From Bacteroidaceae bacterium (GTDB lineage Bacteria; Bacteroidota; Bacteroidia; Bacteroidales; Bacteroidaceae), in contig CABIVS010000005.1 of the NCBI GenBank assembly GCA_902362375.1, forward strand, positions 313,278-377,277: a DNA stretch of 64,000 nt, written 5' to 3'. The translations under genes and the position numbers were made by a program. The stretch's first letter is position 1, and every line of letters begins with the position of its first letter. Under the pieces are notes generated by a model. That model saw only the letters and a list, made by a program, of their open reading frames with translations, was not told where the DNA came from and did not search any database. Shown piece after piece: positions 19,933 through 45,838 of this stretch.

Positions 19933-19953
19933 CACATTCAAATATAGCTAAAC

Positions 19954-25464: not shown

Positions 25465-25471
25465 AGTTTGT

Positions 25472-27340
25472 CTACGGTTTGATGTAAGCTCCCGGAACTT
25501 CCAACAATTTGTTGGGTTCGTTGAAGCGTTGGTTATCGGGCACATCGCGTTTGCCCAGACCCGCTTGCATAAGTTGCTTCAGTTCCGGCAGGTGATGATG
25601 ATAGATGTCGCGCGGCTCTACACTATGCTTGTGGCAGAGTCCGGCTGCCATACCTACTACTTCACCCATCATGCCGGTAGTACGCATCACACGTACCGTA
25701 CCCAAAGCTACATGGGTGCAGCTCATATTGCGACCTGCCATAAAGAGGTTGTCCACATTGCGAGAATAGAGGCAGCGATAGGGAACGGCATAAGGATGAA
25801 TCCAACGATGCACCGTAGCCGACTTGAATTCATTGCCGGGAAAGCGGACACTGTTCACGCTGTCGGGGAAGTGAAGGTCGATGCTCCAAGTTGTGGTAAA
25901 CGAAGCATCCTCGTGCGCCACATTCTTATCAATATCGTCCTGTGACAGTACGTAGTCGCCCAAGAGACGGCGCGATTCGCGTTTGCCTGAAACATACGCC
26001 ACCCAGTCGAGGGAACGGTTGGCATACTTCTTATGGTCTTTATAGTGATTCTTCAGATAGCTCCAGTTGGAATATATCACCAAAAGTCCATAGTCGCGTA
26101 CACGTTCAGCTTCGCTGACTTGATTGCGGTTCATACCCGTTTCCCATTTCCACTCGCCCATAGTTACAGACTCACAGTTTTCAGCGTCAAAACGTACGCC
26201 ATATTCAAAATGAGGGAATGAGGTTTTCTTCTTCATATCCTTACTATACCATTGTATAGAGGCGCCCATCACCAATGAGTCGGGTTGCTCGGGAGCAAGG
26301 CTCTCGCCATATTCATCGCGACCTTCACGCCCCATAGCCCAATCGGCACCGGCTAAATAGCCTATGGTAGCATCACCTGTGCAGTCGCTAAAGAGAGGAG
26401 CGGTAAGTTCGGTTTGTTCGCCTGTCTCGATGTGCTGGATAGTGACTGACGAAATGCGGTCTCCTTGCATCTTCACGGCTACCGCACGTTGAGAAGCATA
26501 AAGGGTAATGTTCTTTTCGGCCTCTATAAAGTCTTCCTTCTTCTGGTCTTCATAGTAGTCGCCCGGTTGGGCATTGCCGGAACGCTCATGGCCAAACTCA
26601 CGTATCATACGACCCAATCCCTGATTAGGCCCCATTTCGATGATACCGCCGAGATGTACACGAATCTCTGACGAGTTATTGCCGCCCAATACAGGACGGT
26701 CGTTCACTAGTGCTACCTTACAGCCTAATCGGGCAGCAGATGCGGCAGCACACATTCCGGCTATTCCCCCTCCTACTACCACAAAGTCGTATTGATGAGC
26801 GGGTACCGTCTGTTGTTGTCGCAAGCGGGTACGAAGTGCGGCTGTCTCTGCCGCATCCCAGGTAGCAGGCTGCGTGTTCGCATCGGTCGTAAGGTAAATG
26901 GCATCGCAACGACCATCGAAACCAGTGAGGTCTTTCAGGGCAAGGGTGGTAGTCCCTGCTTTCAATACTGTCTTTCCGGCAAATTGCCATTGCCAGGAAT
27001 TACCAGTATGTCCTAACGTCATTTTCAGTAACTTGCCGCCTAAAGCCAGGCGGAACTTTCCGGGACCCTCGGCATTGGTCCAAGGCGAAGTCCAGTTGTA
27101 AGTACGGGCATATACGTAGTAAGTGCCCGCCTGGGGAATGTTGATTTCTGCCGTAGCATCCGCCACAGGGATGCCCATGCCATGTGCCATGAGATAGGGT
27201 GAACCCATTTGATCCATGAACTGCTGGTCGAGCACCCAGCCGCCTCGCTGGTTGAAGCTTTCTGCTTCGATGAGCAGTTCTTCGGCTACAGCCACAAGGC
27301 TACAGGCTACGGCTATGCATATCAGTAAGAATTTTTTCAT
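25472..27340 (-). CDS. FAD-dependent oxidoreductase with N-terminal beta-sandwich domain, exported
   Basis: A 622-aa protein with a Sec signal (MKKFLLICIAVACSLVAVA), a carbohydrate-binding-like beta domain (about 25-155), a linker, then a Rossmann FAD domain starting YDFVVVGGGIAGMCAAASAA (GGGIAG at 190-195) and continuing RPVLGGNNSSEIRVHLGG. The FAD family resembles PF12831. The C-terminal motif SCTHVALGTVRVMRTTGMMGE closes the fold. Relatives are found in many PULs and are sometimes labelled xanthan lyase without proof. It may oxidise a sugar hydroxyl. The GTG one codon upstream is an alternative start. Lies between GH105 and GH36 in the PUL. Confidence 0.85.
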   Translation of the reverse strand: MKKFLLICIAVACSLVAVAEELLIEAESFNQRGGWVLDQQFMDQMGSPYLMAHGMGIPVADATAEINIPQAGTYYVYARTYNWTSPWTNAEGPGKFRLALGGKLLKMTLGHTGNSWQWQFAGKTVLKAGTTTLALKDLTGFDGRCDAIYLTTDANTQPATWDAAETAALRTRLRQQQTVPAHQYDFVVVGGGIAGMCAAASAARLGCKVALVNDRPVLGGNNSSEIRVHLGGIIEMGPNQGLGRMIREFGHERSGNAQPGDYYEDQKKEDFIEAEKNITLYASQRAVAVKMQGDRISSVTIQHIETGEQTELTAPLFSDCTGDATIGYLAGADWAMGREGRDEYGESLAPEQPDSLVMGASIQWYSKDMKKKTSFPHFEYGVRFDAENCESVTMGEWKWETGMNRNQVSEAERVRDYGLLVIYSNWSYLKNHYKDHKKYANRSLDWVAYVSGKRESRRLLGDYVLSQDDIDKNVAHEDASFTTTWSIDLHFPDSVNSVRFPGNEFKSATVHRWIHPYAVPYRCLYSRNVDNLFMAGRNMSCTHVALGTVRVMRTTGMMGEVVGMAAGLCHKHSVEPRDIYHHHLPELKQLMQAGLGKRDVPDNQRFNEPNKLLEVPGAYIKP

Positions 27341-27393
27341 CACAGTACAGCGTTTTTATGATTATTGTTTACTATCTTCACAGAGGGAACAGA

Positions 27394-28506
27394 TTATCTC
27401 GCCATTTTATAAATTTCATTGCCTGCCATCAAAAAAGCACCAACTCCATAAACTTCCGTCATGTCACGAGTCACTTTCTTCGGGTCGGCACCGATTTGCT
27501 GCACATAACCCAGTTTCCCATTCGGTTCCACAGCCGAGACTAATGCATTCCAGCCTTTTACCAACACTGGAAGATAGGTTTCCTTATCCAATAAACCTTC
27601 GTTTATTCCATAAGCAATGGAATAGACAATGAAAGTAGTGCAACTCGTTTCCGGCGATGGATAAGAGGCAGGATCCAAAAGACTGGCATGCCAGAAACCG
27701 TCCGGATGCTGTAATCCGGCAACACGTGTGGCCAGTTTTACAAACAATTCCGCATAGAATTTGCGGTTCTTGTCTTTCTTGGGGAGTTCCTTTAATATTT
27801 CAACCAGACCACCAAGCACCCAACCGTTGCCACGTCCCCAAAAGACTTTCTTACCATTGGCTTCGCGCTTATCAAAATAACGCCAGTCACGGTAAAACAA
27901 GTTTTCTTCTTTATCGAACAAGTAACCATAAGTCGCTTTATACTCACGATTCATAAATTTGATATATTTTTTCTCTCCGGTCAGCATATACAGTTTGGCA
28001 TATACAGGGGGAGCCATAAAGAGAGCGTCACACCAAGTCCAACGTTCCAAGGTCTTTAAGTCTCCCTCCACCAGCTTGAAACTGCCTTCAGACGGATGAT
28101 TGACAATCCATTCCGTACGGGCGAGCGTAGGGATAATCATTGCTTCGTCTTTGTACTTGCGGTATAAATCCAAAAAGGACTGTGAAACAGCGATGTCATC
28201 AGCATGATAAAACCGTTTGTCCGGCTGCCAACAATTCCGCCGCCCGATACGAGTCAGCCACTTATAATATGTATCATCACCGTCTTCTTTTTCAGTTAAT
28301 TCCGCCCAATCCACCATGCCGACATAAAGAGCACCTTGCGGCCAGTTCAAGTCGTCATGTTCAGGAGCGGGGTGTGGATTGGCAATCTGCCAATCCGCCA
28401 CCTTTCGCATGATAGACTTTATTTCTGCTTTTTGAAAAGGAATCTCTGTTGCCATTATAAAAACGGAACATAACAGAGACGCTCCCAATAAAAGTGTTTT
28501 TTTCAT
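27394..28506 (-). CDS. GH105 unsaturated rhamnogalacturonyl/glucuronyl hydrolase-like enzyme
   Basis: The 370-aa protein has a Sec signal (about 1-19) and an (alpha/alpha)6 barrel of GH105/GH88 type: WCDALFMAPPVYAKLY, FWGRGNGWVLGGLVEILK and HPDGFWHASLLDP are the recognisable barrel motifs. GH105 enzymes hydrate the C4-C5 double bond of unsaturated uronic acids left by polysaccharide lyases and so release them. No lyase is evident in this PUL, so the unsaturated substrate must come from elsewhere or from unrecognised chemistry encoded here. Spaced about 30 bp after the GH3 gene. Confidence 0.9.
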   Translation of the reverse strand: MKKTLLLGASLLCSVFIMATEIPFQKAEIKSIMRKVADWQIANPHPAPEHDDLNWPQGALYVGMVDWAELTEKEDGDDTYYKWLTRIGRRNCWQPDKRFYHADDIAVSQSFLDLYRKYKDEAMIIPTLARTEWIVNHPSEGSFKLVEGDLKTLERWTWCDALFMAPPVYAKLYMLTGEKKYIKFMNREYKATYGYLFDKEENLFYRDWRYFDKREANGKKVFWGRGNGWVLGGLVEILKELPKKDKNRKFYAELFVKLATRVAGLQHPDGFWHASLLDPASYPSPETSCTTFIVYSIAYGINEGLLDKETYLPVLVKGWNALVSAVEPNGKLGYVQQIGADPKKVTRDMTEVYGVGAFLMAGNEIYKMAR

Positions 28507-28535: not shown

Positions 28536-30989
28536 TTACAGTTCAACCATAGCCTTTAAAGGCAATTGACTGGAAGCAGGACCGACTAAGATCTCAAAGT
28601 CTCCTTTTTCCACTACAAAGCGGTGTTGATTCATATCATAAAAAGAGAATGCATCCTCATCCAGCACAACAGAAACCCGCTTCTTCTCCCCTTTCTTCAA
28701 GAATACCTTTTCATATCCTTTCAGTTCTTTCAACGGACGGGAAACAGAAGATTGTACATCATGCACATACACCTGTGCCACCTCCGAAGCATCCATCTTA
28801 CCTGTATTCTCTATATCAAAGCTAACGGTAACCTGATGCTCACCCGTTTGCTCCGCAGCCATATTACTATAAGCGAAAGTAGTATAAGACAAACCGTAGC
28901 CAAACGGATAGAAAGGTTCTTTTCCCGAACGGTCGTATCCACGATAACCGACAAAGACACCTTCGGAATAGTCTACACGCTTAATCTCCGCCTTTAAGTT
29001 CTCGTAATAACTGCCGTGCACCGGATTATCTTCCCATTTCCGCTCGATAGAAATCGGTAGCTTTCCACTTGGAGAAATCTTACCGGTCAGGATTTCAGCT
29101 ATCGCCTGGCCGCCTTCCTGTCCCGGATACCAGGCCATAAGAATCGCTTTTGCAGCATCATACCAGTTGGTGAAATCCACACCGCCACCAGCGTTCAGTA
29201 CAACCACAACATTGGGATGCATGGACGCAATCTTCTTGATAAACAATTCCTGATAGCGGAGCAAGGCAAACGGACGGTCAAAGCCTTCGCCTTCGGTATT
29301 ACTATTGAAACCTGTGCAGAACACAACATTATCCACCTTTGCCAATCCTTGACGAAGTTTCGCCTCATTAAGGCTATAAGCATTAAAACGAATGATGGCC
29401 GAAGAAATATTATCAAAGAATTCAATCCGGAAACGGTACTCCTTACCACCCTCAACCGGCAGTTCAACTTCACGGCTAGAGTATGAATGATTTCCCCAAT
29501 CTCCTGTAATATGCTTGTCATTCACAAACAGACGATAACCGTCATCACCACCGATATGAAGTTTCAACTGACCGTCAGTTTGTGGCATGTAGCAGGCTGT
29601 CCAACGGACAGAGAATCCATCTGTCGGAAAGCCGTCCAAAGGTGCTCCATATCCCCAGTCATAATCAACAGAGGATTCCGTGCGTATTACTTCAGGCTGG
29701 CCCGAAAGAGTCTTGTTTTTAAAGTATTCAGCTTTGAAGCCTTTCATCTGACGATTAGCATCAGTATAAAACTCATGGACAATATCTTCATAAATCACAT
29801 CATCCGTCAATAGTAACAGATTCCTTTTCTTCAATTCCTTCAAGCCTTGAGCCACTGAGACGGTAGAAAAAGGAGTGACAAACCCACTGCCGCCACCGGT
29901 AGGAATCAAACTTGCATTAGGTCCCATTACGGCTGTCTTTCCTTTCAGCGGGAGCAAGTTTCCTTCATTCTTCAACAGGACTACACCCTCGCGCGCCAGC
30001 TCTAAAGCTGTCTGGCGGGAGAAAGGATTATCCTCTGCGATGTTGCTGTCTTTCTGTTCCTTATCCAGCATACCATAAGCAATCAGAGTTTGCAGGATGT
30101 GTTGTACTTTCAGGTTGATGGTTTCTTCTGTCACTGTGCCGGCTTTGATAGCAGGCAACAGATTCTCCAAATTCATAAAACGTCCTTTCGGCATTTCGAG
30201 GTCAAGTCCGGCGTTAGCAGCGCCTACGGCGGAATATACAGAAGTCCAGTCAGACATCAGAATACCTTTGAAGCCCCAAAGATTGCGCAAGACATCAATA
30301 TTCAACCATTTATGTTCGGTGGCATGGACACCGTTCAACAGATTGTAGCTGTTCATTACGGCGCCGACATTGGCTTCCTGTACTGCTTTCCGGAAAGCCG
30401 GGAAATAGATTTCCTGCAAAGTACGCTCGTCTATGTCAGAGCTGGCATGGTGGCGGCTCCATTCCTGGTTGTTGGCAGCAAAGTGTTTGATTGTAGCAAT
30501 GACTCCTTCCGATTGTACTCCCAGGATATATTGTTTCGCCGTTTCACCTGTCAAGTAAGGGTCTTCACCGAAGTATTCAAAGTTACGGCCGCACAACGGA
30601 GCACGATAGATATTCACGCCCGGACCAAGCAGGATACTAACTCCTCTTGCCTTGGCATCCTGTCCCAAGCCTTGCCCTAACTTATAAAGTAATTCCCGGT
30701 TCCAAGTAGAAGCGGAAAGTATTCCGGAAGGATATAAAGTGCTCTTGGGAACATGATTACGAATTCCCTGCGGCCCGTCAGCCAACTTGATTTCAGGTAT
30801 TCCCAAACGGGGAATGGCACGCAGAGAAAAACTGGTATATCCGGAGATATACTCTATTTTCTCTTGCAAAGTCATTTTTGATACAATGTCCTTCGCACGT
30901 TGTTCGGCTTGGGGAGTGATTGTTTGTGCACAGGTTAATATGCTCCATGCAAGCATACATAAACCTATGCCTCCTATTTTCTTTTTCAT
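28536..30989 (-). CDS. GH3 beta-glucosidase-like enzyme with PA14 domain
   Basis: An 817-aa exported enzyme with signal peptide (about 1-21), GH3 TIM barrel (about 30-300) with nucleophile Asp247 in GILMSDWTSVYS, and an alpha/beta sandwich domain interrupted by a PA14 module (about 416-540, starting MKGFKAEYFKNK and containing GGDDGYRLFVND). A fibronectin-III-like domain lies at the C-terminus. PA14-containing GH3 enzymes usually cleave beta-glucosides, the PA14 shaping the active-site rim and specificity. It is the first of two unlike GH3 genes side by side. Confidence 0.92.
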   Translation of the reverse strand: MKKKIGGIGLCMLAWSILTCAQTITPQAEQRAKDIVSKMTLQEKIEYISGYTSFSLRAIPRLGIPEIKLADGPQGIRNHVPKSTLYPSGILSASTWNRELLYKLGQGLGQDAKARGVSILLGPGVNIYRAPLCGRNFEYFGEDPYLTGETAKQYILGVQSEGVIATIKHFAANNQEWSRHHASSDIDERTLQEIYFPAFRKAVQEANVGAVMNSYNLLNGVHATEHKWLNIDVLRNLWGFKGILMSDWTSVYSAVGAANAGLDLEMPKGRFMNLENLLPAIKAGTVTEETINLKVQHILQTLIAYGMLDKEQKDSNIAEDNPFSRQTALELAREGVVLLKNEGNLLPLKGKTAVMGPNASLIPTGGGSGFVTPFSTVSVAQGLKELKKRNLLLLTDDVIYEDIVHEFYTDANRQMKGFKAEYFKNKTLSGQPEVIRTESSVDYDWGYGAPLDGFPTDGFSVRWTACYMPQTDGQLKLHIGGDDGYRLFVNDKHITGDWGNHSYSSREVELPVEGGKEYRFRIEFFDNISSAIIRFNAYSLNEAKLRQGLAKVDNVVFCTGFNSNTEGEGFDRPFALLRYQELFIKKIASMHPNVVVVLNAGGGVDFTNWYDAAKAILMAWYPGQEGGQAIAEILTGKISPSGKLPISIERKWEDNPVHGSYYENLKAEIKRVDYSEGVFVGYRGYDRSGKEPFYPFGYGLSYTTFAYSNMAAEQTGEHQVTVSFDIENTGKMDASEVAQVYVHDVQSSVSRPLKELKGYEKVFLKKGEKKRVSVVLDEDAFSFYDMNQHRFVVEKGDFEILVGPASSQLPLKAMVEL

Positions 30990-31068: not shown

Positions 31069-33276
31069 TTAGTCTATCAGTTCTATTTTAACGGTCTGTC
31101 CTTGTACCAGAATATGATATTCACCGGCTTCAAGGAAGCGTTTACCATCCTCATTGACAAAACCGAAATCACGTTCCAGGTCGATGTCAAAACGGAAAGT
31201 CTTCGTTTCTCCGGCTTTGATAAGTTGTTTCTCAAAGTGTTTCAGTTCTTTCACCGGACGGGTGATAGAGCAATAAGGATCGGAAATAAACCAATGAACA
31301 GTCTCTGCTCCGTCGCGGGAACCGGTGTTGGTGACAGTCACTTCTGCCGACAGTTTATCGCCGCGCTTCACCTTAGTAGCAGAAGGGGTAACAGTGCCAT
31401 ACTTAAATTCGGTATAACTTAATCCATGCCCGAACGGATATAACGGATCGCTTGTTATATCTTTATAAAATCCCTGATGTCCGCGTCCGCTCTTGCGGCG
31501 ATTATAATAAATAGGAATTTGTCCTGTGGAATAAGGGAACGTCATGGCTAGTTTACCGGAAGGGTTGATACGCCCGGATAAAATTCCTGCCATTGAACGC
31601 GCACCATTTATACCCGGTTGCCATATCTCCAATATAGCATCACAAAGAGGTTCCATGCGATTTAACTCCAAGGGACGTCCATTAGAAAGCACCAATATAA
31701 TAGGTTTACCAGCCTCCTTTAGTTCTTTCACCAATTCTTCCTGAATCTGTGGCAAAGCAATCGTAGAACGGGAAGCATTCTCACCACTCCAGGTAAGCAT
31801 CTCACCCAAACAAACAATGACTACATCAGACCAACGAGCAACGTCCAATGCGCCAGCAAAACCTGAACGGTCATTGCCCTGCGGTTTGCATCCCATTGCA
31901 TAACGTAATTCGGCGTCTCCTCCAAACTCGGCAGTCAACCCATCATAGAGCATTTCCACATCCGTATCTTTTCCATGTCCGCACCAGGAACCCAATAAGT
32001 CCCAACCATTTTTTGCCATTGGACCTACTACGGCAATCTTTTTTTTGTTTGTAAGTGGTAATATCTGATTGTCATTTTTCAACAACACCATTGATTCTGC
32101 TGCCAGTTGAGCGGCCACAGCCATACTTTGCGGACGGAAAAAACGATCCTTCTCATTAGTAACCGGAGTATAAGGACGTTCGAACAAACCCAGACGGAAT
32201 TTTACACGCAATACTCGACGGACTGATTCGTCAACTTGTGCCATTGTTACCTTACCTTCCTCTACAAGCTCTTTCAGATGACGATCGTAGGCATGAGACA
32301 TCATATCCATTTCAAGCCCCGCATTAAAAGCATACCGAGCAGCATCTTTCTTTGTAGCGGCTAATCCCTGATTCTTTAACTGTTCCACAGCCCCCCAGTC
32401 AGACACAATGAACCCGTCATGTTTCCAGCGTTTCTTTAATATCTCGGTCATGATATAAGGATTAGCTGACCCAGGTACTCCACTGATGTCATTGAAAGAA
32501 CTCATCAAAGTGGCCGCACCAGCTTTCACTCCCATCTCATAGGGCAGTAGATAAGTATCCCAAAGAGTTTGAGCTGAAATTTCGGTATAAACATAATCTC
32601 GCCCAGCCTCCGAAGCACCATAACCTACATAGTGTTTCAGACAAGCAGCCATACGGTTCTCTGCTGCCATATCATCTCCCTGATACCCACGCACCGAAGC
32701 AGCGGCAAACACTCCATTTGTATAAGGATCTTCACCATATCCTTCGGCTACACGTCCCCATCGAGGATCACGTGCCACGTCGATCATGGGAGAAAAAGTC
32801 CAATCAACCCCAGACATGCGGGCTTCTTGTGCAGATACCGCACATGCCTGTTCTACCAATCCCGGATTCCATGAACAGGCTTGCCCCAACGAAATAGGAT
32901 ATATGGTGCGAAATCCATGAATAGCATCGTAGCCAAAAATGATGGGAATGCCCAAACGAGATTCTTCCATCGCTTTTTTCTGCATACTATTACGCAACTC
33001 TGGATTTATATCAAAGTAAATCAAAGAACCAATCTCTGACGGTACTTTTTTCACTTCTTCGCCAACATTATTCACATTGTTATTTCGTCCCAATGTATAT
33101 TGGTTTAGTTGTAAAACCTTCTCTTCCAATGTCATACGCGATATTAAATCATCAATACGTTTTTCAATTGGAGCTTTGGCATCCTTATACAAAGGAATAC
33201 TCTTTTTATCTTTTGACGAAAGAGAATGTGTGACTCCCAATAGGCACAATCCCAAAATCAAAACTTTTTTTCTCAT
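31069..33276 (-). CDS. GH3 beta-glucosidase-like enzyme (no PA14)
   Basis: A 735-aa exported enzyme with signal peptide (about 1-20) and the BglX-like three-domain order. The barrel has IPIIFGYDAIHGFRTIYPIS, DPRWGRVAEGYGEDPY and nucleophile Asp293 in FIVSDWGAVEQL; the second domain carries VVIVCLGEMLTWSGENASRS, and a fibronectin-III-like C-terminus closes it. Expected to remove terminal beta-linked glucose or similar residues in the periplasm. The start codon is the ATG at 33276; the TTG before it is unlikely. A 220-bp gap before the gene holds a gene remnant and may hold its own promoter. Confidence 0.93.
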   Translation of the reverse strand: MRKKVLILGLCLLGVTHSLSSKDKKSIPLYKDAKAPIEKRIDDLISRMTLEEKVLQLNQYTLGRNNNVNNVGEEVKKVPSEIGSLIYFDINPELRNSMQKKAMEESRLGIPIIFGYDAIHGFRTIYPISLGQACSWNPGLVEQACAVSAQEARMSGVDWTFSPMIDVARDPRWGRVAEGYGEDPYTNGVFAAASVRGYQGDDMAAENRMAACLKHYVGYGASEAGRDYVYTEISAQTLWDTYLLPYEMGVKAGAATLMSSFNDISGVPGSANPYIMTEILKKRWKHDGFIVSDWGAVEQLKNQGLAATKKDAARYAFNAGLEMDMMSHAYDRHLKELVEEGKVTMAQVDESVRRVLRVKFRLGLFERPYTPVTNEKDRFFRPQSMAVAAQLAAESMVLLKNDNQILPLTNKKKIAVVGPMAKNGWDLLGSWCGHGKDTDVEMLYDGLTAEFGGDAELRYAMGCKPQGNDRSGFAGALDVARWSDVVIVCLGEMLTWSGENASRSTIALPQIQEELVKELKEAGKPIILVLSNGRPLELNRMEPLCDAILEIWQPGINGARSMAGILSGRINPSGKLAMTFPYSTGQIPIYYNRRKSGRGHQGFYKDITSDPLYPFGHGLSYTEFKYGTVTPSATKVKRGDKLSAEVTVTNTGSRDGAETVHWFISDPYCSITRPVKELKHFEKQLIKAGETKTFRFDIDLERDFGFVNEDGKRFLEAGEYHILVQGQTVKIELID

Positions 33277-33370
33277 CAATGTTTTCGTCAGTTAATTATT
33301 ATTTCTAGTTTTCAGATGTATATCAAGCAATACGTAAGCAGATACTTATTCCAGCCATTCCATGCTCTTA

Positions 33371-33499: not shown

Positions 33500-35149
33500 T
33501 TACCGAGCGGTAACTTCAAATAATTTCAACCATCCGGCAGATGTTACATTGTTCTTCACAGCAAGGTGAATTCCAATCTCATTCTGCTTTGTCGTATCAA
33601 CAATACCAACAGCCCACATGTATTTACCTGCCTCCACGCCTTCAACCCGGGTTGTAAACGTATATGATTTAGCCGTACCTTTCACCCAATCACAAGCTTC
33701 CGGTTCTCCATCAACAAATACATACTTCGGTTTATCATTCTTGGTGTCCAATAAAGCAAAAGCCACTTTATATTTATTCTTCCACTGGGGAATATTCGTC
33801 GGACAATATCCCCAACCAAAATTATTCCAACGGTGCGCTATTTCAATCTGTTTACCATTAGAGATAGTTGTAGGCAAAGAAATTCTGTCCGGAAATAAAC
33901 GATAGCTTCCTTCTGTACAGAATTGTTTAACTAATTGGAAAGCTTCATTAAACCATGAATAAGTTTCTCCATTGCGAAAGTCTGAATTATAGCGTAAATC
34001 CATCATATTGACGCAGGCTGTTTTAGCCTCATCAAACTCACCCTGACGTACTTCTGCATAATTGGCATATCCATCTCCCTGAATCGAGTTTCCATGAGAA
34101 TTTTTCACCCAGCCACCTTCCATTACTACAGGAACGAGATACTTCCACTTGGCTATAAAATTGCGTTCCCAAGTAGAATAGTAAGTTTTCATACCAAACG
34201 CATCGTGACGTAATGAATATCCTTTAGCTACTGCTTTTCCTATTAATCTTTCAGTATCCTTATCATAATTATTGCCGTCCCATTCCTTGCTTGTACCTAT
34301 CCAACGATGATAATTTACAAACACAGGAACTTTATCAAATACTTGAGAATATAAATCTGTCACCCAATCGAAAACAGCCTCACGAGTCGGCAGCTCCGGT
34401 TTTCCCAACTCACGCACCTGATAGTACCATACACTATGATACTCTCCCCATTTTCCAAATCCTGAACCACTTACAAACTGTACTTTGTCGGGATCATTAA
34501 AATCCTTAGCCAAAGCCCTGATAAATTTCTCATAATATTTCTGGAAAATAGGATCATCCGGATAGGGAGACCATACTTTTACTGAACCTGTTTGTGTTTC
34601 ATATCCTTTCGCGCCAGCCTCTTTTACAAAATTCGGAGTAAAATTATAGTGCTTATCACGGCTATCCACCACAAAAGTAAAGGCCAATTTCATATTTCTT
34701 TGCTTAGCTCCCTCTATCAACATCTTCAGTCGCTTAGCCGAAGGGGTATCACAATCAGAATTCCATGCGTATTTTCCTTCTTCAGGATTAAAATCAGCCC
34801 AGGCACCACGAAGGTATAAGGTATTTGCATAATCAGAGACCTTTACAGTGCCTTCCGATGACGGGAAATTATCATAATCCTGCCAGAATGTGGAAGATAA
34901 ACCATCACCAATACCCGCATATAATACCCATCCGGAAAGAGGATTATGCAAAATGATATTTCGATTCTGCTTTACCGTGACAATGCTGTTCCCAGGAATA
35001 GAAGTATCTTCTACCAAACCATCATCACCATTATCACCTCCTTCTTTATCATTATCACTGCCACAAGCGACTAATGATATAGCCATAGAAAAAATAAGCC
35101 CGCAACTTATTTTTCTCAAACTGCACATATTTTGAAAATTAATCTTCAT
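33500..35149 (-). CDS. DUF4832 family lipoprotein (first paralogue), putative glycan-active enzyme
   Basis: A 549-aa protein with a lipoprotein signal ending SLVAC (acyl Cys about 29) and an acidic linker (GSDNDKEGGDNGDDG) suited to surface display. The body has a TIM-barrel flavour: WADFNPEEGKYAW, GSGFGKWGEYHSVWYY, FVNYHRWIG, RHDAFGMKTYY, VVMEGGWVK. The Glu in KWGEYH and the Glu in MEGGW are in positions that suit a pair of catalytic carboxylates, though this is inference. The C-terminus (about 430-549) is a beta domain. DUF4832 has no activity known to me. Paired with a close paralogue 11 bp upstream. Confidence 0.78.
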   Translation of the reverse strand: MKINFQNMCSLRKISCGLIFSMAISLVACGSDNDKEGGDNGDDGLVEDTSIPGNSIVTVKQNRNIILHNPLSGWVLYAGIGDGLSSTFWQDYDNFPSSEGTVKVSDYANTLYLRGAWADFNPEEGKYAWNSDCDTPSAKRLKMLIEGAKQRNMKLAFTFVVDSRDKHYNFTPNFVKEAGAKGYETQTGSVKVWSPYPDDPIFQKYYEKFIRALAKDFNDPDKVQFVSGSGFGKWGEYHSVWYYQVRELGKPELPTREAVFDWVTDLYSQVFDKVPVFVNYHRWIGTSKEWDGNNYDKDTERLIGKAVAKGYSLRHDAFGMKTYYSTWERNFIAKWKYLVPVVMEGGWVKNSHGNSIQGDGYANYAEVRQGEFDEAKTACVNMMDLRYNSDFRNGETYSWFNEAFQLVKQFCTEGSYRLFPDRISLPTTISNGKQIEIAHRWNNFGWGYCPTNIPQWKNKYKVAFALLDTKNDKPKYVFVDGEPEACDWVKGTAKSYTFTTRVEGVEAGKYMWAVGIVDTTKQNEIGIHLAVKNNVTSAGWLKLFEVTAR

Positions 35150-35160
35150 ACCTATAGCTC

Positions 35161-36723
35161 TTATTTATTTATGCTTACTTTCGACAATTTTAACCAGCCC
35201 GAATCCAATATATCCCCTTTGGCGGCAATATCCAGCCCTACGAGATCTTTATTACTCCGGTCAACCAAGCCCACAGCCCAAACATAAGTACCTGTTTCAG
35301 CTTTGGACATATCCGGCTCAAATACATATTCAGCGGGACTTCCTTTTATCCACTTGGATAAATCTGTATCCGTATCCACAAATGTATATCGCACCTCATT
35401 CGTTTCAGAATCAAGCAAAGCGAAAGCTACTTTATATTTTTGATTCCATTGCGGAATATTAGTAGGACAGTACCCCCATCCCAGATTGTTCCAGCAATGT
35501 TTAATAGTCGGCGTTGTTTTTTTAGAGACTTCTAACGGCAAAGAGATTTCACTGGGATAGAGCCTATACCCCCCTTCCCGAAGGAATCGGCGTACTAAAT
35601 CAAAAGCATCTTTAAACCAGGACTCTGTATCACCAAAACGAAAATCCATCATATTGACATGTGCCTCTTTGCTGTCATCAAACTCACCGCGTCTTACGTC
35701 CTCGTGTGAATCCTTGCGATATCCTCTAGGATCCTGCCAATAATTATGTGATTTGACAATCCAGCCACCTTCCATAATAATAGGGCATATATTACGATAT
35801 TTTTCTGCAAACCTACGTTCCCAACTGCCATAATAGGTTGTCATACCAAATGCATCATGACGTAATGAATATCCTTTCTTGATTGCTTCTTCCAGCATTT
35901 CTTCACTGTCAGCAGCAAAATGTTCATCATCTACCCAATCTTTTCCCGCACCAATCCATCTATGGTAGTTAATTACTACCGGAACTTTATCAAAAGCTTG
36001 AGAATATATATCTGTCACCCAATCGAAAACAGCTTTCTTTGGAGTATCATCACCTGTTGAATAAATCATTGTATGATATTCTCCCCATTTCCCAAGTCCG
36101 AATCCATCTATAAATTCAACTTTCGAAGGATCGTTGAAATCTTTAGCCAGAGCCTTCACAAATTTAGTATAGTACTTCTGAAAAACAGGATCGTCAGAAT
36201 AAGGTGACCATTTACTTTTATTCATAAATCCTTTTGCACCGGCATCTTTTACAAATTGAGGAGTAAATTCTGTTCTCTTATCACGACTGTCAACTACAAC
36301 ACGAAATGCCAAACGCATATTCCGCTGATAAGCTCCTTCAATATATGCTCTCAAATTAGAATCAATTTTCCAACCATATACATCTTCCTGTGGATTAAAA
36401 TCTGTCCAACTAGCGCGAATATAAAGCGTATGAGCATAATCTGTCACACTAACATTGTGTCCCAGTTCAGGAATATACATATGGTCATACTGTGCCCAAA
36501 AATCCGCAGCATCCACTCCCATACTTGCATAGAGCACCCATCCTGTAAGCGGGTTATGAAGAATACGCAAAGAATCAGGCTGAATCGTAACTATGTTATT
36601 CTCTGATAGTTCCTTATCAAATGAAACGGCTGAATTCTCGTCTCCGAAAACAGGAGATAAAAGAAACATAAACAGACAAAGAGACACAATTACTCTATAA
36701 TAACTAATCTTTCTTACAACCAT
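35161..36723 (-). CDS. DUF4832 family exported protein (second paralogue)
   Basis: A 520-aa paralogue of the neighbouring DUF4832 lipoprotein, sharing the landmarks WTDFNPQEDVYGW, GFGLGKWGEYHT, INYHRWIG, RHDAFGMTTYYGSWERRF, IIMEGGW and the beta-domain motif WNNLGWGYCPTNIPQWNQKY. It has an ordinary Sec signal (about 1-27, ending LLSPVFG) instead of a lipobox, so the two copies probably sit in different places. Starts at 36774 (ATG) or 36801 (GTG) would place translation inside a 15-bp hairpin, so I prefer the ATG at 36723 just after it. Function unknown; PUL context implies action on the target glycan. Confidence 0.78.
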   Translation of the reverse strand: MVVRKISYYRVIVSLCLFMFLLSPVFGDENSAVSFDKELSENNIVTIQPDSLRILHNPLTGWVLYASMGVDAADFWAQYDHMYIPELGHNVSVTDYAHTLYIRASWTDFNPQEDVYGWKIDSNLRAYIEGAYQRNMRLAFRVVVDSRDKRTEFTPQFVKDAGAKGFMNKSKWSPYSDDPVFQKYYTKFVKALAKDFNDPSKVEFIDGFGLGKWGEYHTMIYSTGDDTPKKAVFDWVTDIYSQAFDKVPVVINYHRWIGAGKDWVDDEHFAADSEEMLEEAIKKGYSLRHDAFGMTTYYGSWERRFAEKYRNICPIIMEGGWIVKSHNYWQDPRGYRKDSHEDVRRGEFDDSKEAHVNMMDFRFGDTESWFKDAFDLVRRFLREGGYRLYPSEISLPLEVSKKTTPTIKHCWNNLGWGYCPTNIPQWNQKYKVAFALLDSETNEVRYTFVDTDTDLSKWIKGSPAEYVFEPDMSKAETGTYVWAVGLVDRSNKDLVGLDIAAKGDILDSGWLKLSKVSINK

Positions 36724-36742
36724 ACTACTAATTGTTTTTTTA

Positions 36743-36822: not shown

Positions 36823-38463
36823 TTATCTCTTATCAAAGAATACTGTCAGTTCTTTAATATCTAATTCTATGTAATTAACTCCTACAGGTACACTAAAGAA
36901 AGCATAGCGGTTGTTAGCTTGTCCACCGACTACAGTCTGTTTTTGATTGTAGTCACTCTCTGCAATATCAAGGCAACCGTCATAAGATCCTCTGATGGCA
37001 TCTGCTGTTGAGCCAAAGGTATAGCAACCTGCACTTTGCGGTCCGACTTTAAAGTTCAATCCACCCGGATGTGCATTTCCATCTTTATCTTTAATGGAAT
37101 TCTTTCTGGGTAACTCCGCTCCTTTGTATATAAACAAATAAGGATTTGCCAAACTAGGTGTCATAGAATGAGCCATAGTGAATCCTGTATCACCAGTGCC
37201 ATCTTTAGCCCATCCATCGTATGGTCCCCAAATAAAGACTCTTTCAATAGTGGTAGTCACCGTATTATTGTTCCATGTCCACGAAACAACCATTGGTTTA
37301 GGATCTGTTTCGGGGGAGTAAATCGTAACCTTTTTAGTATTTATGTTAATCACAATACGATAGACACCCGCAATCTTAATATTCCAATGATAACCAAGCG
37401 CAGCTGTTTCCGGACTCATTGTCGAGATATTCATTGCTGTACCATCTGTAAAATCGCCTGATTCTTCCGGAGCAATAGCCATATCTTTCTGTCCATTAAA
37501 CAAGATCGGGAAATAAATAGTACCTGGTTGCAGTTCTGCATGGAACGCATATTGATTTTCATCTTCTATCGTGCGAGTCATCTCTACATCTGCGCTAACA
37601 CAAGTTCCGGCAATATAGATTTTATCAGCTTCTATAAAATTACTAGCCAAACCTATAGTAACGGTACGTGTTTCAAAATCTACCACTACACGATACTGCC
37701 CATCTTCAGGAATCACCCAATATCCAGCATTATCTATCCCCTTAATTTTAGCTTCCATTGCTCCATCAGTTATCTGTTGTTCTGCAGCAACTGGTGAGAT
37801 GGCATTAATCTTATTTTCATCTTTCCAAACAATCGGGAAGTGAAGATTACCTGCCTTCAAGTCACAAATGGAAACATAACGCTTCGGCTGACTTTCCATT
37901 GGCAAGATTTCAATATCTTCACCATCAACAGCTGTGCCTGACATATAAAGATGGTCTGCTACAAAAGTCTTTTCAGAATACATCTTTACTTTTATAGTAA
38001 CTGTAGAAACTTCCGGTTTTACAAACTTAGGCCCTTCTACAGAACCGATAATACGGGCTTGTAACTTTACTAAATCACCAGGCTGCTGCTTCCACTTTGA
38101 CACCAATAAACTCTGCAATTCTTTATGAGTATAACTTTTAGAAAAATCATCATCAATATACTCCCTTATCATTGTGTTTGTTCCAAAACTGTTATTTTCC
38201 AGATCCATTTTATAAAGATAGGAAATATAATAGTCAGAGCCTATTGGGTCAGCTTCCGTCCAGTTTAACGTCAATGCAACCTCATCCGGGGTATCTTCCT
38301 TGAGTTCTATTTCATAATCAGAAGGAGTAAGAACTAAACTTGTACGATTGTCGAGCGAATTAGTAGCATCGTCATCATCATTGCATGCTACTATGAAACA
38401 CGAAGCAAGTGTCAGGAAGAAGAACCGTAAAAGGTTCTTCTTAAATATATATCCGTTTTTCAT
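36823..38463 (-). CDS. SusE/SusF-like outer-membrane glycan-binding lipoprotein
   Basis: A 546-aa lipoprotein with signal and lipobox FIVAC followed by an acidic stretch (NDDDDATN). The N-terminal domain (about 35-160) resembles the SusE fibronectin-like domain. Next come two or three repeats of about 110 residues of the SusE/F carbohydrate-binding kind (DHLYMSGTAVDGEDIEI..., DKIYIAGTCVSADVEM..., ERVFIWGPYDGWAKDG), and a C-terminal domain. The protein would bind the glycan at the surface beside SusC/SusD. The ATG at 38463 is chosen over an upstream TTG. It lies 32 bp downstream of the SusD gene. Confidence 0.85.
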   Translation of the reverse strand: MKNGYIFKKNLLRFFFLTLASCFIVACNDDDDATNSLDNRTSLVLTPSDYEIELKEDTPDEVALTLNWTEADPIGSDYYISYLYKMDLENNSFGTNTMIREYIDDDFSKSYTHKELQSLLVSKWKQQPGDLVKLQARIIGSVEGPKFVKPEVSTVTIKVKMYSEKTFVADHLYMSGTAVDGEDIEILPMESQPKRYVSICDLKAGNLHFPIVWKDENKINAISPVAAEQQITDGAMEAKIKGIDNAGYWVIPEDGQYRVVVDFETRTVTIGLASNFIEADKIYIAGTCVSADVEMTRTIEDENQYAFHAELQPGTIYFPILFNGQKDMAIAPEESGDFTDGTAMNISTMSPETAALGYHWNIKIAGVYRIVININTKKVTIYSPETDPKPMVVSWTWNNNTVTTTIERVFIWGPYDGWAKDGTGDTGFTMAHSMTPSLANPYLFIYKGAELPRKNSIKDKDGNAHPGGLNFKVGPQSAGCYTFGSTADAIRGSYDGCLDIAESDYNQKQTVVGGQANNRYAFFSVPVGVNYIELDIKELTVFFDKR

Positions 38464-38495
38464 ATCTATATTCAATATATTAATATTATAACTAT

Positions 38496-40442
38496 TTATT
38501 GGTTTCCGACGGTCCAGTCAGGAGTTTGTACCAAATTCCAATTCTTATCAATATCGTCCTGTGGAATAGGCCACCAATAGCTTATAAATTTACGTGTCTG
38601 ATATACTGTACGAGTATAATATTTATTTCTATAGTCCGCATCGGATACTTTAATATAAGCATTCATGCCATAAAAATCACCATCCAATACTTTCTCGGCT
38701 AATTTCCAGCGACGCAGATCATTAAAACGAAGTCCAGATTCACAATTCAATTCCACACGCCTTTCTTGACGAATTAACTCGCGCATTTCTACAGGATCTG
38801 ATGGGGCTGTTATCTTGCCTTCTTCAGCTGAAACACTATATTCAGGAATACCCGCACGCTCACGAATCAAATTGACATATTTCAGAATCTCTTTTTGATT
38901 AGCAGTATAAGTGCCCTTCTCAATGCTATATTCATTTAACGCCTCAGCATAACTTAAATAGATCTCTGCCAAACGACATAATGCACCATGACGGTTTTTA
39001 TAATCTCCACTGCCTTCTTTGGGATTTGCAGATGGGTCTACTCTCTTACGTACCAGATAGCCGCTCCATGGAGCGTCGTGAGAAGGACCACCGTCTTTAC
39101 CATCCATATAGAAATCTGTATTTCTCTTACCACCAATATGCCATTGTTCGTTATGCAATACTGAAATATAAAAACGAGGTTCGCGGTCACAATACATTTT
39201 ATATGTATTGGCATCTACAACTACATTTTCATCTTTATTACGATCTCCTTCTGAAGACCCATACTGCCACTTTGTAGAATAAGTCTCTTTTTGCGTACTA
39301 AAGCCTGTCTCTGAATAATTAGCATCAGGGTTAACTTTAGGAGAACCATCCGAATTATAGCCTATAATAGGTCTTTGACCGTTTCTCATGAAAAAAGCAT
39401 CAACCAAAGATTGGGTTATTCCGATCGCTCCCACTCCATTAATACCCAAACCACGTGGAATACAGTTTTTATCATACCATCCACCGGAATCCATTGTACG
39501 AACAAACAGTAATTCTCTGTTTGCTTCGTTCCATCTCTTCATCACTGCATTCTGATAAGAAAGAAAAGGATCAATATCACCGTTATCCAAATATTCATAA
39601 TGCAAATGATAGCCAGCAGCTTCCGCCTCATCGATAACCAGTTTACAAGCATCTACTGCTCTTTTCCATCGTTCCGGATCATGTGCAGAATTAAAGATAG
39701 GAGTTCCATCAATGTTTTTTATATTCGCCAATGCAGGATTACCATTCACCAAGTCACTAGCAGCAAATAATAACATACGCGCACGCATTGCCAAACATCC
39801 AACAGAAGTCACACGGCCATATTTCTTATCTTCAGTTTGAGTGGCAGGCAATTGTTTTGAAGCTTCCAGCATTTCTTGATCTGCCCAATCAATTACATTA
39901 TAAAACGGCTCTTGTTTCAACATCAGATCATCAGCCGAAGTACTTTCACTAGCCTCGCGAATAATGGGAACCGAACCATAAGCTATAGCCATCATAGAAT
40001 TATAATAAGCTATAAAGAAACGACATTCAGCTTTCATAAAGTCCACTTCTTCAGCCGGTACAGCCTCCAGCGGGTGAGCATGTTTAATAAACAAATAAGC
40101 GGAACGGATATATTTAGGATAAGTATTCCAATAAGTAATTACTCCGGGATTGTCTGCTGTCCAGTTACCTTTTTGATATTGAATGGCTTTAAATCCTTGC
40201 GCTTCCCAACCAACCGAAGGAATCAGTTCATCAGCTATGGCATCCGGACCATCATAAGTATAATATTCAGGCAGGCCGCGATAAACATATGCCAGCCAAC
40301 GTTCCATATTCTTTTTATTCTCAAATACTGATTCTAAGTCCAACTGGTCATCCGGTTGCTTATCCAGATAATCAGAACAAGAAGAAAAAGCAAATGTCGT
40401 AATAATACTTAATACTATAAATTTTAATATGCTATTTTTCAT
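38496..40442 (-). CDS. SusD/RagB-type nutrient-binding lipoprotein
   Basis: A 648-aa surface lipoprotein that forms a lid on the SusC channel and captures the glycan. Lipoprotein signal with lipobox FSSC and N-terminal SDYLDKQPDDQLDLESVFEN, which is the standard SusD start. TPR-like helical region and the C-terminal RagB motif (EIYLSYAEALNEY, RRVELNCESGLRFNDLRRWK, WWPIPQDDIDKN) are present. It begins 11 bp after the susC stop codon, so the pair is co-transcribed and co-translated. Confidence 0.95.
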   Translation of the reverse strand: MKNSILKFIVLSIITTFAFSSCSDYLDKQPDDQLDLESVFENKKNMERWLAYVYRGLPEYYTYDGPDAIADELIPSVGWEAQGFKAIQYQKGNWTADNPGVITYWNTYPKYIRSAYLFIKHAHPLEAVPAEEVDFMKAECRFFIAYYNSMMAIAYGSVPIIREASESTSADDLMLKQEPFYNVIDWADQEMLEASKQLPATQTEDKKYGRVTSVGCLAMRARMLLFAASDLVNGNPALANIKNIDGTPIFNSAHDPERWKRAVDACKLVIDEAEAAGYHLHYEYLDNGDIDPFLSYQNAVMKRWNEANRELLFVRTMDSGGWYDKNCIPRGLGINGVGAIGITQSLVDAFFMRNGQRPIIGYNSDGSPKVNPDANYSETGFSTQKETYSTKWQYGSSEGDRNKDENVVVDANTYKMYCDREPRFYISVLHNEQWHIGGKRNTDFYMDGKDGGPSHDAPWSGYLVRKRVDPSANPKEGSGDYKNRHGALCRLAEIYLSYAEALNEYSIEKGTYTANQKEILKYVNLIRERAGIPEYSVSAEEGKITAPSDPVEMRELIRQERRVELNCESGLRFNDLRRWKLAEKVLDGDFYGMNAYIKVSDADYRNKYYTRTVYQTRKFISYWWPIPQDDIDKNWNLVQTPDWTVGNQ

Positions 40443-40453: not shown

Positions 40454-43400
40454 TTAGAATTTAATTTCAAAACCTGCAGATAACGATTTCATAATTGGGT
40501 ACGCAGCCCCTGTAGTATTCTCGACTTCCGGATCCCACAAATCAAATTTTGAGAATGTTAAAAGATTTGTTCCTCTCACGAAAAGACGAATGCCCGATAT
40601 AACTGTAGTATTTCTCCACAAATTCTTTGGTAAAGAATAACCAAGTTCAATGTTTTTTAAACGTAAAAAACTCATATTCCGCAGCCACCATGTAGATGGT
40701 TGGTTATTATTACTATTTATACCGTCATCCAAACGCGGATAAAATACGTTCTGACTTGGGTTGTCTACAGTCCAACGATCATTTGCATTAGTAAACATAT
40801 TGCCTGTCACTCCTCTATTGGCACCCGGAATAATGCTTGATCCTAATATATTCCAACTACGGCCTATTCCTTGAAAGAGAACCCCAAAATCTATATCTTT
40901 ATATTTCATATTCAGTCCAAAGCCATATACTATCTCCGGATCTTTTGTTCCTCCGATTGGAGATTTATCAAATACGTCCACTTTACCATCACCATTGACA
41001 TCCCTGTATCTGATATCCCCCGGACGTAATTTACCTACAAAACTTTGAGTCGGAATTCCTTCTTTCAGTTTACCTGTACTTACGTCTTCAAAGTCGTCTT
41101 CTGTAAACAAACCTTCTGCTATATAGCCAGTTAATTGCCCTACCGGATGTCCTGTTTCAGCACGGTTAGTACCAACTACTGCACTAGGTTCATCCTTTTC
41201 TGTTATTTCATTATGAGCATAGGTAAATGTTCCCATTAAGCTGACAAATAAGTCTTTGCCAAACTGTTTATTAACATTTAAAGAAACTTCTACACCCTGA
41301 TTAGTCACTTTTCCAAAATTCTTCCAAGGTTGCTTCATAAATCCAGCCGTCATCGGAACAGACTCACGTGGCATAAATATATCTTTACGGCGTTCATCGA
41401 AATAGTCTAATTGCAAATCAATCATACCATTCAGGAAACCTAGCTCAACCCCCAAATTCATCTTATTAACAATCTCCCATGTCAAATCTTGTACTGCAAA
41501 CTCACCTTCTGCCATACCAGTTAAGCCATAACTGCTATCCAATCCCCATTTATACATGTTTAATGTATCATAGTCATCAGTAATTGTAGAAAGGTATGCA
41601 AAACGGCGTCCACCTAAATTAGCATTACCTACCTGACCATAGGACGCACGCAATTTCAATTTAGATATGACCTTACGCAATGGTTGCATAAATGCCTCTT
41701 CCGATACAATCCAACCAATAGCTCCTGAAGGGAAAAAACCATAACGTTTACCTTTGGCAAAATTTTCAGAACCATTATAGCCAAAATTAAATTCACCTAC
41801 ATATTTACCCGAATAGGTATAAGATGCACGTCCTGCCAATCCCTGATTACGGTAAGGCAACTTGCTTCCATCATCATAATTACGACGATTAAACAATAAC
41901 ATTGCAGCAACGGAATGTTTCTCGGCGAATGTACGGTCATAAGACAAAGTAGCTTCCATATATACGCTCTTATTTCCATAATCACCGCTTTTTGAGTAAT
42001 CCAGGAAATTAGTACCATTGGATTTTGATGCTATAATCAAATTACCTTCATCATCACGTCCTGTAGCAGGTACATAATAATCCGGTGTCTTTCCACGAGA
42101 AACAGTACCTGAAGAAAACCTGTCAAATGAGAATGTACCTTTTACTTTCAATCCCGGAAGTAAGAATTTCAAATCTTGTTCTACAGAAAACAGTGTTTCA
42201 ATCTTACTGTCGCTTCTTCTTTTATATCCACTTTGAGTAGCCCATGCCCAAACGTTTGGCTCCTCTGTTGTCGGTATCTGCCCACTGGAATATTGTGCAG
42301 GGAAAGCATGAGGAACAGCAACGAACGCTTTCTGGAAAATTTGAGATATATCTTTCGTTGTAGAATTTCTATCTTGCAAATATCCACCAATATTAAAACG
42401 TAATTGCGTAGTAGGACTTAATTTCAAATCCACATTAGAACGAACGTTATAACGTTGCAATTTAATAGTAGGATCCCAATCATAACTTTTATCACGTTTC
42501 AAAATACCACGTTCATTATACGCAGCAGCAACAAAAGAATAACGTAATGTCTCTGTACCACCAGAAATATCTACTGTTACACGCTGATTCGAAGCATAAT
42601 CATTTGCAATTGCATCCATCCAATTCACGTCCGGATATAAATCAGGATCATAACCTGCACGAGTTTTTGCAATACGATCTGTATATTTAGGCTGTTGTCC
42701 TGTATCCATCAAGATATCATCCAAAACCTGCATATAATCTGCCGCACCCAAATACTCGGGAAGTTTAACTGGCTGTGTAGCTGCAAATTCAGCCTTTACA
42801 GTCACACGAGGTTTACCAACTTGTCCGCGTTTTGTATTAATTAAAATAACACCATTAGCTCCCCGCACTCCATAAACAGCACTTGCAGCAGCATCTTTCA
42901 ACACAGAAAAAGATTCTATCTCTTCAGGATCAATATTATTCAAATCGCGTTCTATACCATCAATCAAAACCAATGGGTTTTGTCCGGCATCCTGGAATGT
43001 ACTAATACCACGAATCCAGAAAGAAGAATTATCATATCCCGGTTCACCAGAACGTTGCACAGCTAATACACCAGCAACTGTACCAGCCAGATTATTACTT
43101 ATTGAACGAGTAGTAGAAACCTTTAACTTAGCAGGTTCAATCGTTGTGATAGAACCAACAACAGACTCTTTCTTTTGTGCGCCATAGGCAACCACTACAA
43201 CCTCATCTAATTGACCAACATCTTCTACCATTTGTACATTAACAACCTTCCGGTTATTAACAACCTCTTCTTTAGGAACAAAACCAATATAACGAAAAGA
43301 AAGTACAGATTTTCTTTCAGGAACAATAATACTATAATTACCATTCATGTCTGTCAACGCATGTACTGTAGAATCATTTTTCAAAATGATTGTTACACCA

Positions 43401-45286: not shown

Positions 45287-45838
45287 TCATTTCTTACGCA
45301 AAACCAGATTCAGATTTTGAGCAATTTCTTCTAAAGCAAAAGCAATATGATTATTGATAGTCTTCACAGATATATTTAATATGTCTGCAATCTCTTTGTA
45401 AGGTAACCCTTCTATCTTCGCCAAGAAAAAGACATGTTTACATTTAGGTGGTAGCTGTTGGATAGCATTGTTTATTTTCTCCATCTCCTCTTTACTAATC
45501 ATCGCCTCGTCAGGTGACTGGATAGGAGCAAATATAAAATCCCCTATACCGTCAAGCGATAATTCAGTTTTTCCCGTTTCCTTCCTCAAATAAGAAATAG
45601 CTTTCCGATAAGTAATCGTCTGTATCCAGGCATTCATATTTTCTATACCACCCAAGGTTTTTCTGTTTTTCCAAACCTCATAGAAAACATCACTTACAAC
45701 CTCTTCAGCCGGTTCCTTTTGACCAATCAAAGCAAAAACATAATGATATAGACGTGAAGAATAACGTTCCATAAAACGGCAAAAAGCCGCTTCATCACTG
45801 TTTATAATTCTGTCTATGTCATTACTTTCAGGTTTCAC
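45287..45838 (-). CDS. ECF RNA polymerase sigma factor of the PUL
   Basis: A 183-aa ECF sigma factor. Region 2 (about 15-85) has FMERYSSRLYHYVFALIGQ and VVSDVFYEVWKNR; region 4 (about 125-175) has INNAIQQLPPKCKHVFFLAK and the helix-turn-helix LPYKEIADILNISVKTINNH. It would direct polymerase to the susC promoter and be held by the adjacent FecR protein. The start codon is GTG at 45838; a stop lies four codons upstream and no in-frame ATG exists nearby. Confidence 0.94.
   Translation of the reverse strand: MKPESNDIDRIINSDEAAFCRFMERYSSRLYHYVFALIGQKEPAEEVVSDVFYEVWKNRKTLGGIENMNAWIQTITYRKAISYLRKETGKTELSLDGIGDFIFAPIQSPDEAMISKEEMEKINNAIQQLPPKCKHVFFLAKIEGLPYKEIADILNISVKTINNHIAFALEEIAQNLNLVLRKK

What the first reader, a model, noticed from the sequence alone, without database searches (positions are those of the whole stretch)
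33500..36723. Tandem DUF4832 paralogues as candidate new glycan-cleaving enzymes
Seen: two adjacent paralogues share barrel-like landmarks with conserved carboxylates (KWGEYH and MEGGW, plus NYHRWIG and RHDAFGM). One is a lipoprotein, the other has a plain Sec signal. Known: PULs normally encode an endo-acting enzyme at the surface. Inference: no recognised endo-hydrolase or lyase exists among the 15 PUL genes, so the lipoprotein copy is a strong candidate for the missing surface endo-enzyme and the other for a periplasmic counterpart.
Basis: partly seen in the sequence, partly recalled or inferred. Interest (0 to 1): 0.75.

Follow-up and report, generated by a model that had tools for sequence, protein, structure and literature searches.

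The report
Paired candidate sugar-chain-cutting gut enzymes
Two neighbouring unnamed proteins of a gut bacterium look like a matched pair of sugar-chain-cutting enzymes, one probably on the cell surface and one probably inside the envelope, built on a fold that has a tested relative which breaks up a biofilm sugar.

Summary
Observation confirmed. A (33500-35149, lipoprotein signal) and B (35161-36723, plain Sec signal) are 51% identical and carry all four motifs. A confident AlphaFold model of A is a TIM barrel plus a C-terminal beta-sandwich, closest to GH14 beta-amylases, GH35 and GH42. The Glu of KWGEYH lies just after strand 4, the Glu of MEGGW on strand 7; both are Glu in 362 of 362 aligned rows. 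Their distance could not be measured. The superfamily already has one functional hydrolase: Streptococcus intermedius SIR_1591 (DUF4832), which disperses Pel aggregates, so that general idea is not new. New here: a PUL-bound branch in which A and B are old, separate lineages, not a recent tandem copy; the A lineage has its own loop insertions; the B lineage lacks the lipoprotein signal that most relatives have; and the partners (GH2 glucuronidase-type, GH36-like, GH3, GH105/GH88, esterases, and UxuA/KduI in relatives) point to a glucuronate-containing glycan. A is the only hydrolase of the 15-gene PUL with a lipobox, hence the best candidate surface enzyme. Endo action is plausible, not shown; the top-ranked solved folds are mainly exo-enzymes. 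A lyase elsewhere in the pathway remains likely.

The parts
33500..35149 (-). Protein A: DUF4832-like lipoprotein, TIM barrel (about 60-417) plus C-terminal beta-sandwich (418-549); candidate surface glycoside hydrolase
34442..34444 (-). Codon of A Glu236 (KWGEYH), candidate general acid, loop after strand 4
34118..34120 (-). Codon of A Glu344 (MEGGW), candidate base or nucleophile, strand 7
35161..36723 (-). Protein B: DUF4832-like paralogue with plain Sec signal (520 aa from ATG; 546 aa from GTG at 36801); candidate periplasmic glycoside hydrolase
36079..36081 (-). Codon of B Glu241 (546 aa numbering), KWGEYH
35770..35772 (-). Codon of B Glu344 (546 aa numbering), MEGGW
36823..38475 (-). SusE-family lipoprotein
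38496..40442 (-). SusD-family lipoprotein
40454..43843 (-). SusC-like TonB receptor with STN domain
44007..45125 (-). FecR-type anti-sigma factor
45287..45838 (-). ECF sigma factor
31069..33279 (-). GH3
28536..30989 (-). GH3 with PA14 insert
27394..28506 (-). GH105/GH88 (PF07470), closest solved 4ce7, unsaturated 3S-rhamnoglycuronyl hydrolase
25472..27343 (-). FAD-dependent oxidoreductase with a sub-threshold golvesin-C match near the N-terminus
23398..25545 (-). GH36-like (melibiase) protein
21865..23163 (-). AXE1 (CE7-type) esterase
19954..21750 (-). GH2, beta-glucuronidase type, very close to PDB 6d8k
19078..19941 (-). DUF4886, SGNH-clan protein

Best explanation
A and B are glycoside hydrolases of a DUF4832-like family with a (beta/alpha)8 barrel and a C-terminal beta-sandwich. 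Glu236 of A (Glu241 of B) in KWGEYH is the general acid and Glu344 in MEGGW the base or nucleophile. A, a lipoprotein with acidic residues after its cysteine, works at the cell surface beside SusC/D/E and makes the first cut or cuts in a glucuronate-containing, acetylated glycan. B works on imported fragments in the periplasm, where GH105, GH2, GH3, the GH36-like enzyme and the esterases finish the job. Shown: fold of A, invariant residues, signals by pattern, old A/B split, gene partners. Inferred: hydrolysis (about 0.87), surface placing of A (about 0.75), glucuronate in the substrate (about 0.7), endo action by A (about 0.5).
Against: No activity data on these two proteins. The Glu-Glu distance was not measured (no coordinates given out). 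The top-ranked solved folds (GH14, GH35, GH42) are mainly exo-acting (general knowledge), though endo-enzymes (GH157, GH5, endoglycoceramidase) follow. hhalign against one B. cereus beta-amylase finds no sequence kinship; none of the 240 close relatives listed carries PF02449. The SIR_1591 passages name no catalytic residue and rest on aggregate dispersal; deletion of the gene gave no phenotype. The lipobox is the common state: 22 of 28 other non-fusion rows have it too, so it is not special to A. By the looser pattern the FAD oxidoreductase also matches a lipobox. A G001 PUL has GH36-like, GH97, GH2 and GH3 without DUF4832, so that kit does not need these proteins.
Confidence: 0.55

Rival explanations
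1. Both are exo-acting hydrolases (pocket enzymes like beta-amylase or GH35/GH42) that trim chain ends; the real endo-cut is made by a lyase or hydrolase outside this locus.
For: The top-ranked folds are mainly exo-enzymes. GH105/GH88 and KduI imply that a lyase acts somewhere; one related locus (G097) has a heparinase II/III-like gene and a GH5 gene near its DUF4832-like gene.
Against: A lipoprotein signal with acidic residues after the cysteine favours a first-cut role; SIR_1591 disperses whole aggregates. Extra loops in the A lineage differ from B and the rest.
Confidence: 0.28
2. The barrel works as a polysaccharide lyase and makes the unsaturated uronides for GH105/GH88.
For: Fusion with PF07470 domains; GH105 without a recognised lyase in the PUL; KduI and UxuA beside a related locus.
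Against: Two invariant Glu at strands 4 and 7 is the hydrolase pattern; GH42 kinship in the distant clade; the SIR_1591 polymer is described as GalNAc-rich. From memory, barrel-fold polysaccharide lyases are not usual.
Confidence: 0.06
3. Non-catalytic glycan-binding proteins like SusE/SusF that borrowed a hydrolase barrel.
For: Position next to SusE; the C-terminal beta-sandwich; a published remark that this domain resembles carbohydrate-binding domains.
Against: Both putative catalytic Glu are Glu in 362 of 362 rows; pure binders often lose them.
Confidence: 0.05
4. A and B are a recent tandem duplicate with redundant roles.
For: Adjacent, 11 bases apart, 51% identical.
Against: The tree puts A in an 11-row group (SH-aLRT 100) and B in another five-row group (SH-aLRT 92); the strand 8 loop is 11 residues in 11 of 11 A-type and 5-7 in 35 of 35 others.
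Confidence: 0.05

Closest known systems
SIR_1591 of Streptococcus intermedius (DUF4832), PMC12345266
   Same: TIM barrel like beta-amylases and beta-galactosidases plus C-terminal DUF4832 beta-domain; said to be extracellular; acts on a polysaccharide (section 21 read whole, other passages seen)
   Different: In a Pel biosynthesis operon, with a transmembrane helix; here a PUL with a lipoprotein and a plain-Sec paralogue. Its sequence was not fetched, so identity to A and B is not known.
GH14 beta-amylase (1b90, 3voc)
   Same: Best fold match; by eye a similar acid motif, GGPAGELRYP in GH14 against GLGKWGEYH in B; the second Glu (E367, VLNGENAL) may correspond to E344
   Different: No sequence kinship by hhalign against one sequence; no PF01373 match; no alpha-amylase-type partner seen in the PUL
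GH42 and GH35 beta-galactosidases
   Same: Barrel fold; PF02449 in 64 of 120 listed proteins of the distant DUF4832 clade
   Different: A and B themselves match neither profile; E236 lies nine residues past strand 4
DUF4874-DUF4832-dockerin protein of a Ruminococcus cellulosome, PMC7480376
   Same: DUF4832 in a secreted cellulosomal protein (one passage read)
   Different: Named with another N-terminal domain, DUF4874; listed in a metaproteome table, no function given in that passage

Membership tests
DUF4832 (PF16116) | Pfam gathering score 29.2 bits | tested here: not met
   A 16.4, B 19.0 bits; hence 'DUF4832-like'. Relatives such as P0007 and P0012 (65% to B) do carry PF16116.
SIR_1591-type DUF4832 hydrolases | TIM barrel similar to beta-amylase and beta-galactosidase plus C-terminal beta domain | tested here: met
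   for A; B only by 51% identity to A
SIR_1591-type DUF4832 hydrolases | Hydrolysis of a polysaccharide | not testable with these tools
   needs an assay
GH14 | Match to PF01373 | tested here: not met
   not among the families at E 0.01; hhalign against one GH14 sequence without a hit
GH14 | Barrel with acid Glu after strand 4 and base Glu at strand 7 | tested here: inconclusive
GH42 | Match to PF02449 | tested here: not met
   A and B not matched; 64 of 120 listed distant relatives are
Glycoside hydrolases, two-carboxylate mechanism | Two invariant carboxylates, at strands 4 and 7 of a barrel | tested here: met
   E236 and E344, 362 of 362 rows; strands
Glycoside hydrolases, two-carboxylate mechanism | The two carboxylates face each other at a catalytic distance | not testable with these tools
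   no model coordinates were given out
Surface PUL endo-enzyme | Lipoprotein signal | tested here: met
   A only, by my patterns; surface exposure itself not tested
Surface PUL endo-enzyme | Internal cleavage of the polymer | not testable with these tools
   needs product analysis

The most novel reading that the evidence does not exclude
The PUL-bound DUF4832-like proteins are a new hydrolase family with a beta-amylase-like active site (acid on the loop after strand 4, base on strand 7), inverting and acting inside chains of a glucuronate-containing glycan, and they work as an old two-lineage relay: a surface lipoprotein form with extra loops at strands 2 and 8, and a periplasmic form.
Probability: 0.22. 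Interest if true: 0.72.

Novelty: new variant of a known kind. Interest (0 to 1): 0.5.

Why it matters
DUF4832-like genes of this type lie in PUL-like loci of Bacteroides, Dysgonomonas, Prevotella, Pedobacter and Paludibacter records. In the window's PUL no first-cut enzyme is recognised; whether each of the other loci lacks one was not checked. If A-type proteins make that cut, these PULs become readable, and a family known from one streptococcal hydrolase gains a catabolic branch, two candidate catalytic residues to mutate and a substrate class to test (glucuronate-containing glycans).

Tried and rejected
Recent tandem duplication: rejected by the tree and loop lengths. Membership of GH14 by sequence: not met. 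GH42 by sequence: not met for A and B. Identification with the GH35/GH144 PUL of B. xylanisolvens (PMC11739564; outline and passages seen): neither family was found in this PUL. Literature searches for the substrate gave listings that I did not read further, apart from PMC11739564; searches for PDB codes 6d8k, 7vqm, 5noa, 4ce7 gave, as far as listed, mostly chance strings and no usable paper. Searches for DUF4832 and DUF4874 listed 4 papers and 1 of the same 4; passages were seen in all four. No CAZy database was on hand, so whether a GH number exists for this family is not known. The second structural look spans mostly model residues 63-490; the C-terminal sandwich alone was not searched. A strict lipobox pattern was followed by a looser one for relatives and for the PUL; with the looser one the FAD oxidoreductase also matches, so A is 'the only hydrolase with a lipobox', not 'the only enzyme'. 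The fewest-changes count of the lipobox label (6) was not compared with shuffles.

A lipoprotein signal special to A: rejected. Outside the A and B groups 22 of 28 non-fusion rows also have one; the B group, without it, is the exception.

Strict dependence of the partner kit on DUF4832: rejected. G001 has a second PUL with GH36-like, GH97, GH2 and GH3 but no DUF4832, and 8 of the 14 genomes with GH36-like have no DUF4832-like match. Four of the 10 genomes counted as DUF4832-positive (G330, G346, G392, G426) hold far-type proteins on the tree; in G330 the GH36-like gene is on another contig. In some searches only the best two or three first-look candidates per genome were scored, so counts are lower bounds.

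Full report
What is there. A (33500-35149) and B (35161-36723; 546 aa if read from the GTG at 36801) lie on the minus strand 11 bases apart, 51% identical over 505 columns. A has a lipobox followed by acidic residues; B has none and a plain signal (my own patterns). The 15-gene locus reads ECF sigma, anti-sigma, SusC, SusD, SusE, B, A, GH3, GH3-PA14, GH105/GH88, FAD oxidoreductase, GH36-like, AXE1 esterase, GH2, DUF4886. Pfam on all 15 and NCBIfam on 11 name no endo-hydrolase or lyase. The closest named records are Bacteroides xylanisolvens XB1A, B. finegoldii and a Bacteroides MAG, each 98% identical in B. The window's own assembly is not held.

Candidate active site. In an alignment of A, B and the 360 proteins listed by three searches (120 each, of 1059, 354 and 3077 found), E236 and E344 are Glu in 362 of 362 rows. 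R114 and W117 are kept in 360 of 362 (two gaps), R314 in 360, D316 in 350. E236 sits nine residues after strand 4 (223-227), E344 on strand 7 (341-345). In B. cereus beta-amylase Glu172 lies in GGPAGELRYP and Glu367 in VLNGENAL (the sequence of 1itc has Ala at 172; that both are catalytic is recalled). The likeness of GLGKWGEYH to GGPAGELRYP is by eye; hhalign against this one sequence found nothing. In the distant clade, 64 of the 120 listed proteins carry GH42 PF02449 beside DUF4832 (counted by me); none of the 240 close relatives listed does. In the L008 protein the GH42 match ends at residue 196 and its WGE Glu is residue 206. Inversion or retention cannot be told.

Prior knowledge. The only experimental DUF4832 work found is PMC12345266 (section 21 read whole, other passages seen): purified SIR_1591 of Streptococcus intermedius disperses Pel aggregates; its predicted structure is a TIM barrel like beta-amylases and beta-galactosidases with a C-terminal DUF4832 domain. 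Deleting the gene had no phenotype there. A search for its locus name found that paper only. So the general idea, DUF4832 proteins as hydrolases, is in print. I found no paper on the PUL-bound branch in my searches, which cover open PMC papers only.

Two old lineages. On a 46-row tree A falls in an 11-row group (SH-aLRT 100) with proteins of other genomes; 10 of 11 have a lipobox, the exception being a fusion (L030). B falls in a 5-row group (SH-aLRT 92), 0 of 5 with a lipobox. Three rows in each group are the window's and two near-identical copies, so independent lineages are about nine and three. Of the other 28 non-fusion rows 22 have a lipobox: the lipoprotein state is common, and B's plain signal is the exception. 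Both types occur together in the window type, in a Dysgonomonas contig (L022) and in genome G010. A-type proteins have a strand 8 loop of 11 residues in 11 of 11 against 5-7 in 35 of 35 others, and a strand 2 loop of 10 (one of 20) against 4-5. In barrels these loops line the cleft (general knowledge), so A and B probably see different substrates or chain lengths (inference).

Partners. In 22 contexts of near-type relatives (window included; G001, L019 and L021 dropped as near copies, L020 kept) GH36-like occurs in 13, GH2 in 13, GH3 in 11, FAD oxidoreductase in 9, DUF4886 in 7, GH97 in 6, AXE1 in 5, GH105 in 3 (45% identity threshold; GH97 by cluster; stretches of 10-64 kb). In 7 contexts of far-type relatives these counts are 0, except GH97 in one. 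Among 392 genomes of the order, 10 have a strong match to the family profile (E at most 1e-100) and share GH36-like in 6 (0.36 expected, p 1e-7), FAD oxidoreductase in 7 (1.1 expected, p 1e-5), GH2 in 6 (1.0 expected, p 1e-4). Without G001 it is 5, 6 and 5 of 9. Four of the 10 are far-type; relatedness was not corrected for; only the best two or three candidates per genome were scored. Against a strict link: G001 has a second PUL with GH36-like, GH97, GH2 and GH3 and no DUF4832.

Substrate class. DUF4832-like proteins are fused to PF07470 (GH88/105) domains (P0024, P0026, P0028, P0039) and to DUF4886 (L030); FAD oxidoreductase is fused to GH36-like, and GH2 to GH3. KduI and UxuA lie near the G356 genes, and a protein of the same cluster as UxuA near the G233 genes; a PF07470 protein lies in the G056 locus; a glucuronoyl esterase, a GH5 and a heparinase II/III-like gene in the G097 locus. 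The window's GH105 is closest to 4ce7, an unsaturated 3S-rhamnoglycuronyl hydrolase; a match to the beta-galactosidase BglB model is far below its cut-off (86 of 420 bits). Together this points to a glucuronate-containing, partly acetylated glycan, with a lyase acting somewhere. The exact glycan stays unknown.

Verdict. Observation confirmed. Interpretation partly supported: hydrolase very likely, surface role of A likely, endo action an even bet. A new branch of a kind that has one tested member in the papers found.

Noticed in passing
L057:5557-6324: A 256 aa protein made only of GH35 accessory beta domains (PF21317, PF21467) stands next to a 908 aa GH2; its cluster occurs in six contexts (Pfam run on this one).
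   Followed up: partly
L030:3747-7457: One 1237 aa frame joins a DUF4886 SGNH domain, a long middle part and a DUF4832-like enzyme; both neighbouring genes match the right-handed beta-helix model, one of them below its cut-off.
   Followed up: partly
L048/L049 (G356 33698-37582 of the joined stretch): The FAD oxidoreductase and the GH36-like protein form one 1295 aa reading frame, so they probably act in one pathway; the role of the oxidoreductase is unknown.
   Followed up: no
L074/L075 (G330 contig 68): Four FAD oxidoreductase-like genes in a row, near a GH36-like and a rhamnosidase gene.
   Followed up: no
L064-L066 (G001, 3.93-3.985 Mb): A second PUL in the window's nearest held genome has GH36-like, GH97, GH3 and GH2 but no DUF4832, and a 790 aa protein without a Pfam match.
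   Followed up: partly
L020:16988-21636: In B. finegoldii a second ECF/anti-sigma set with a third DUF4832-like gene and a SusC start lies directly downstream of GH105; several window PUL genes are not in between.
   Followed up: no
L019:13524-15732: The GH3 gene reads as two overlapping frames in B. xylanisolvens XB1A, a frameshift or a sequencing error.
   Followed up: no
window 19954-21750: The GH2 matches PDB 6d8k with 1207 bits over nearly its whole length, so one PUL member has a very close solved structure.
   Followed up: partly
window 25472-27343: The FAD oxidoreductase starts with an AVAC that a loose lipobox pattern accepts and a strict one rejects; its place in the envelope is unsure.
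   Followed up: partly
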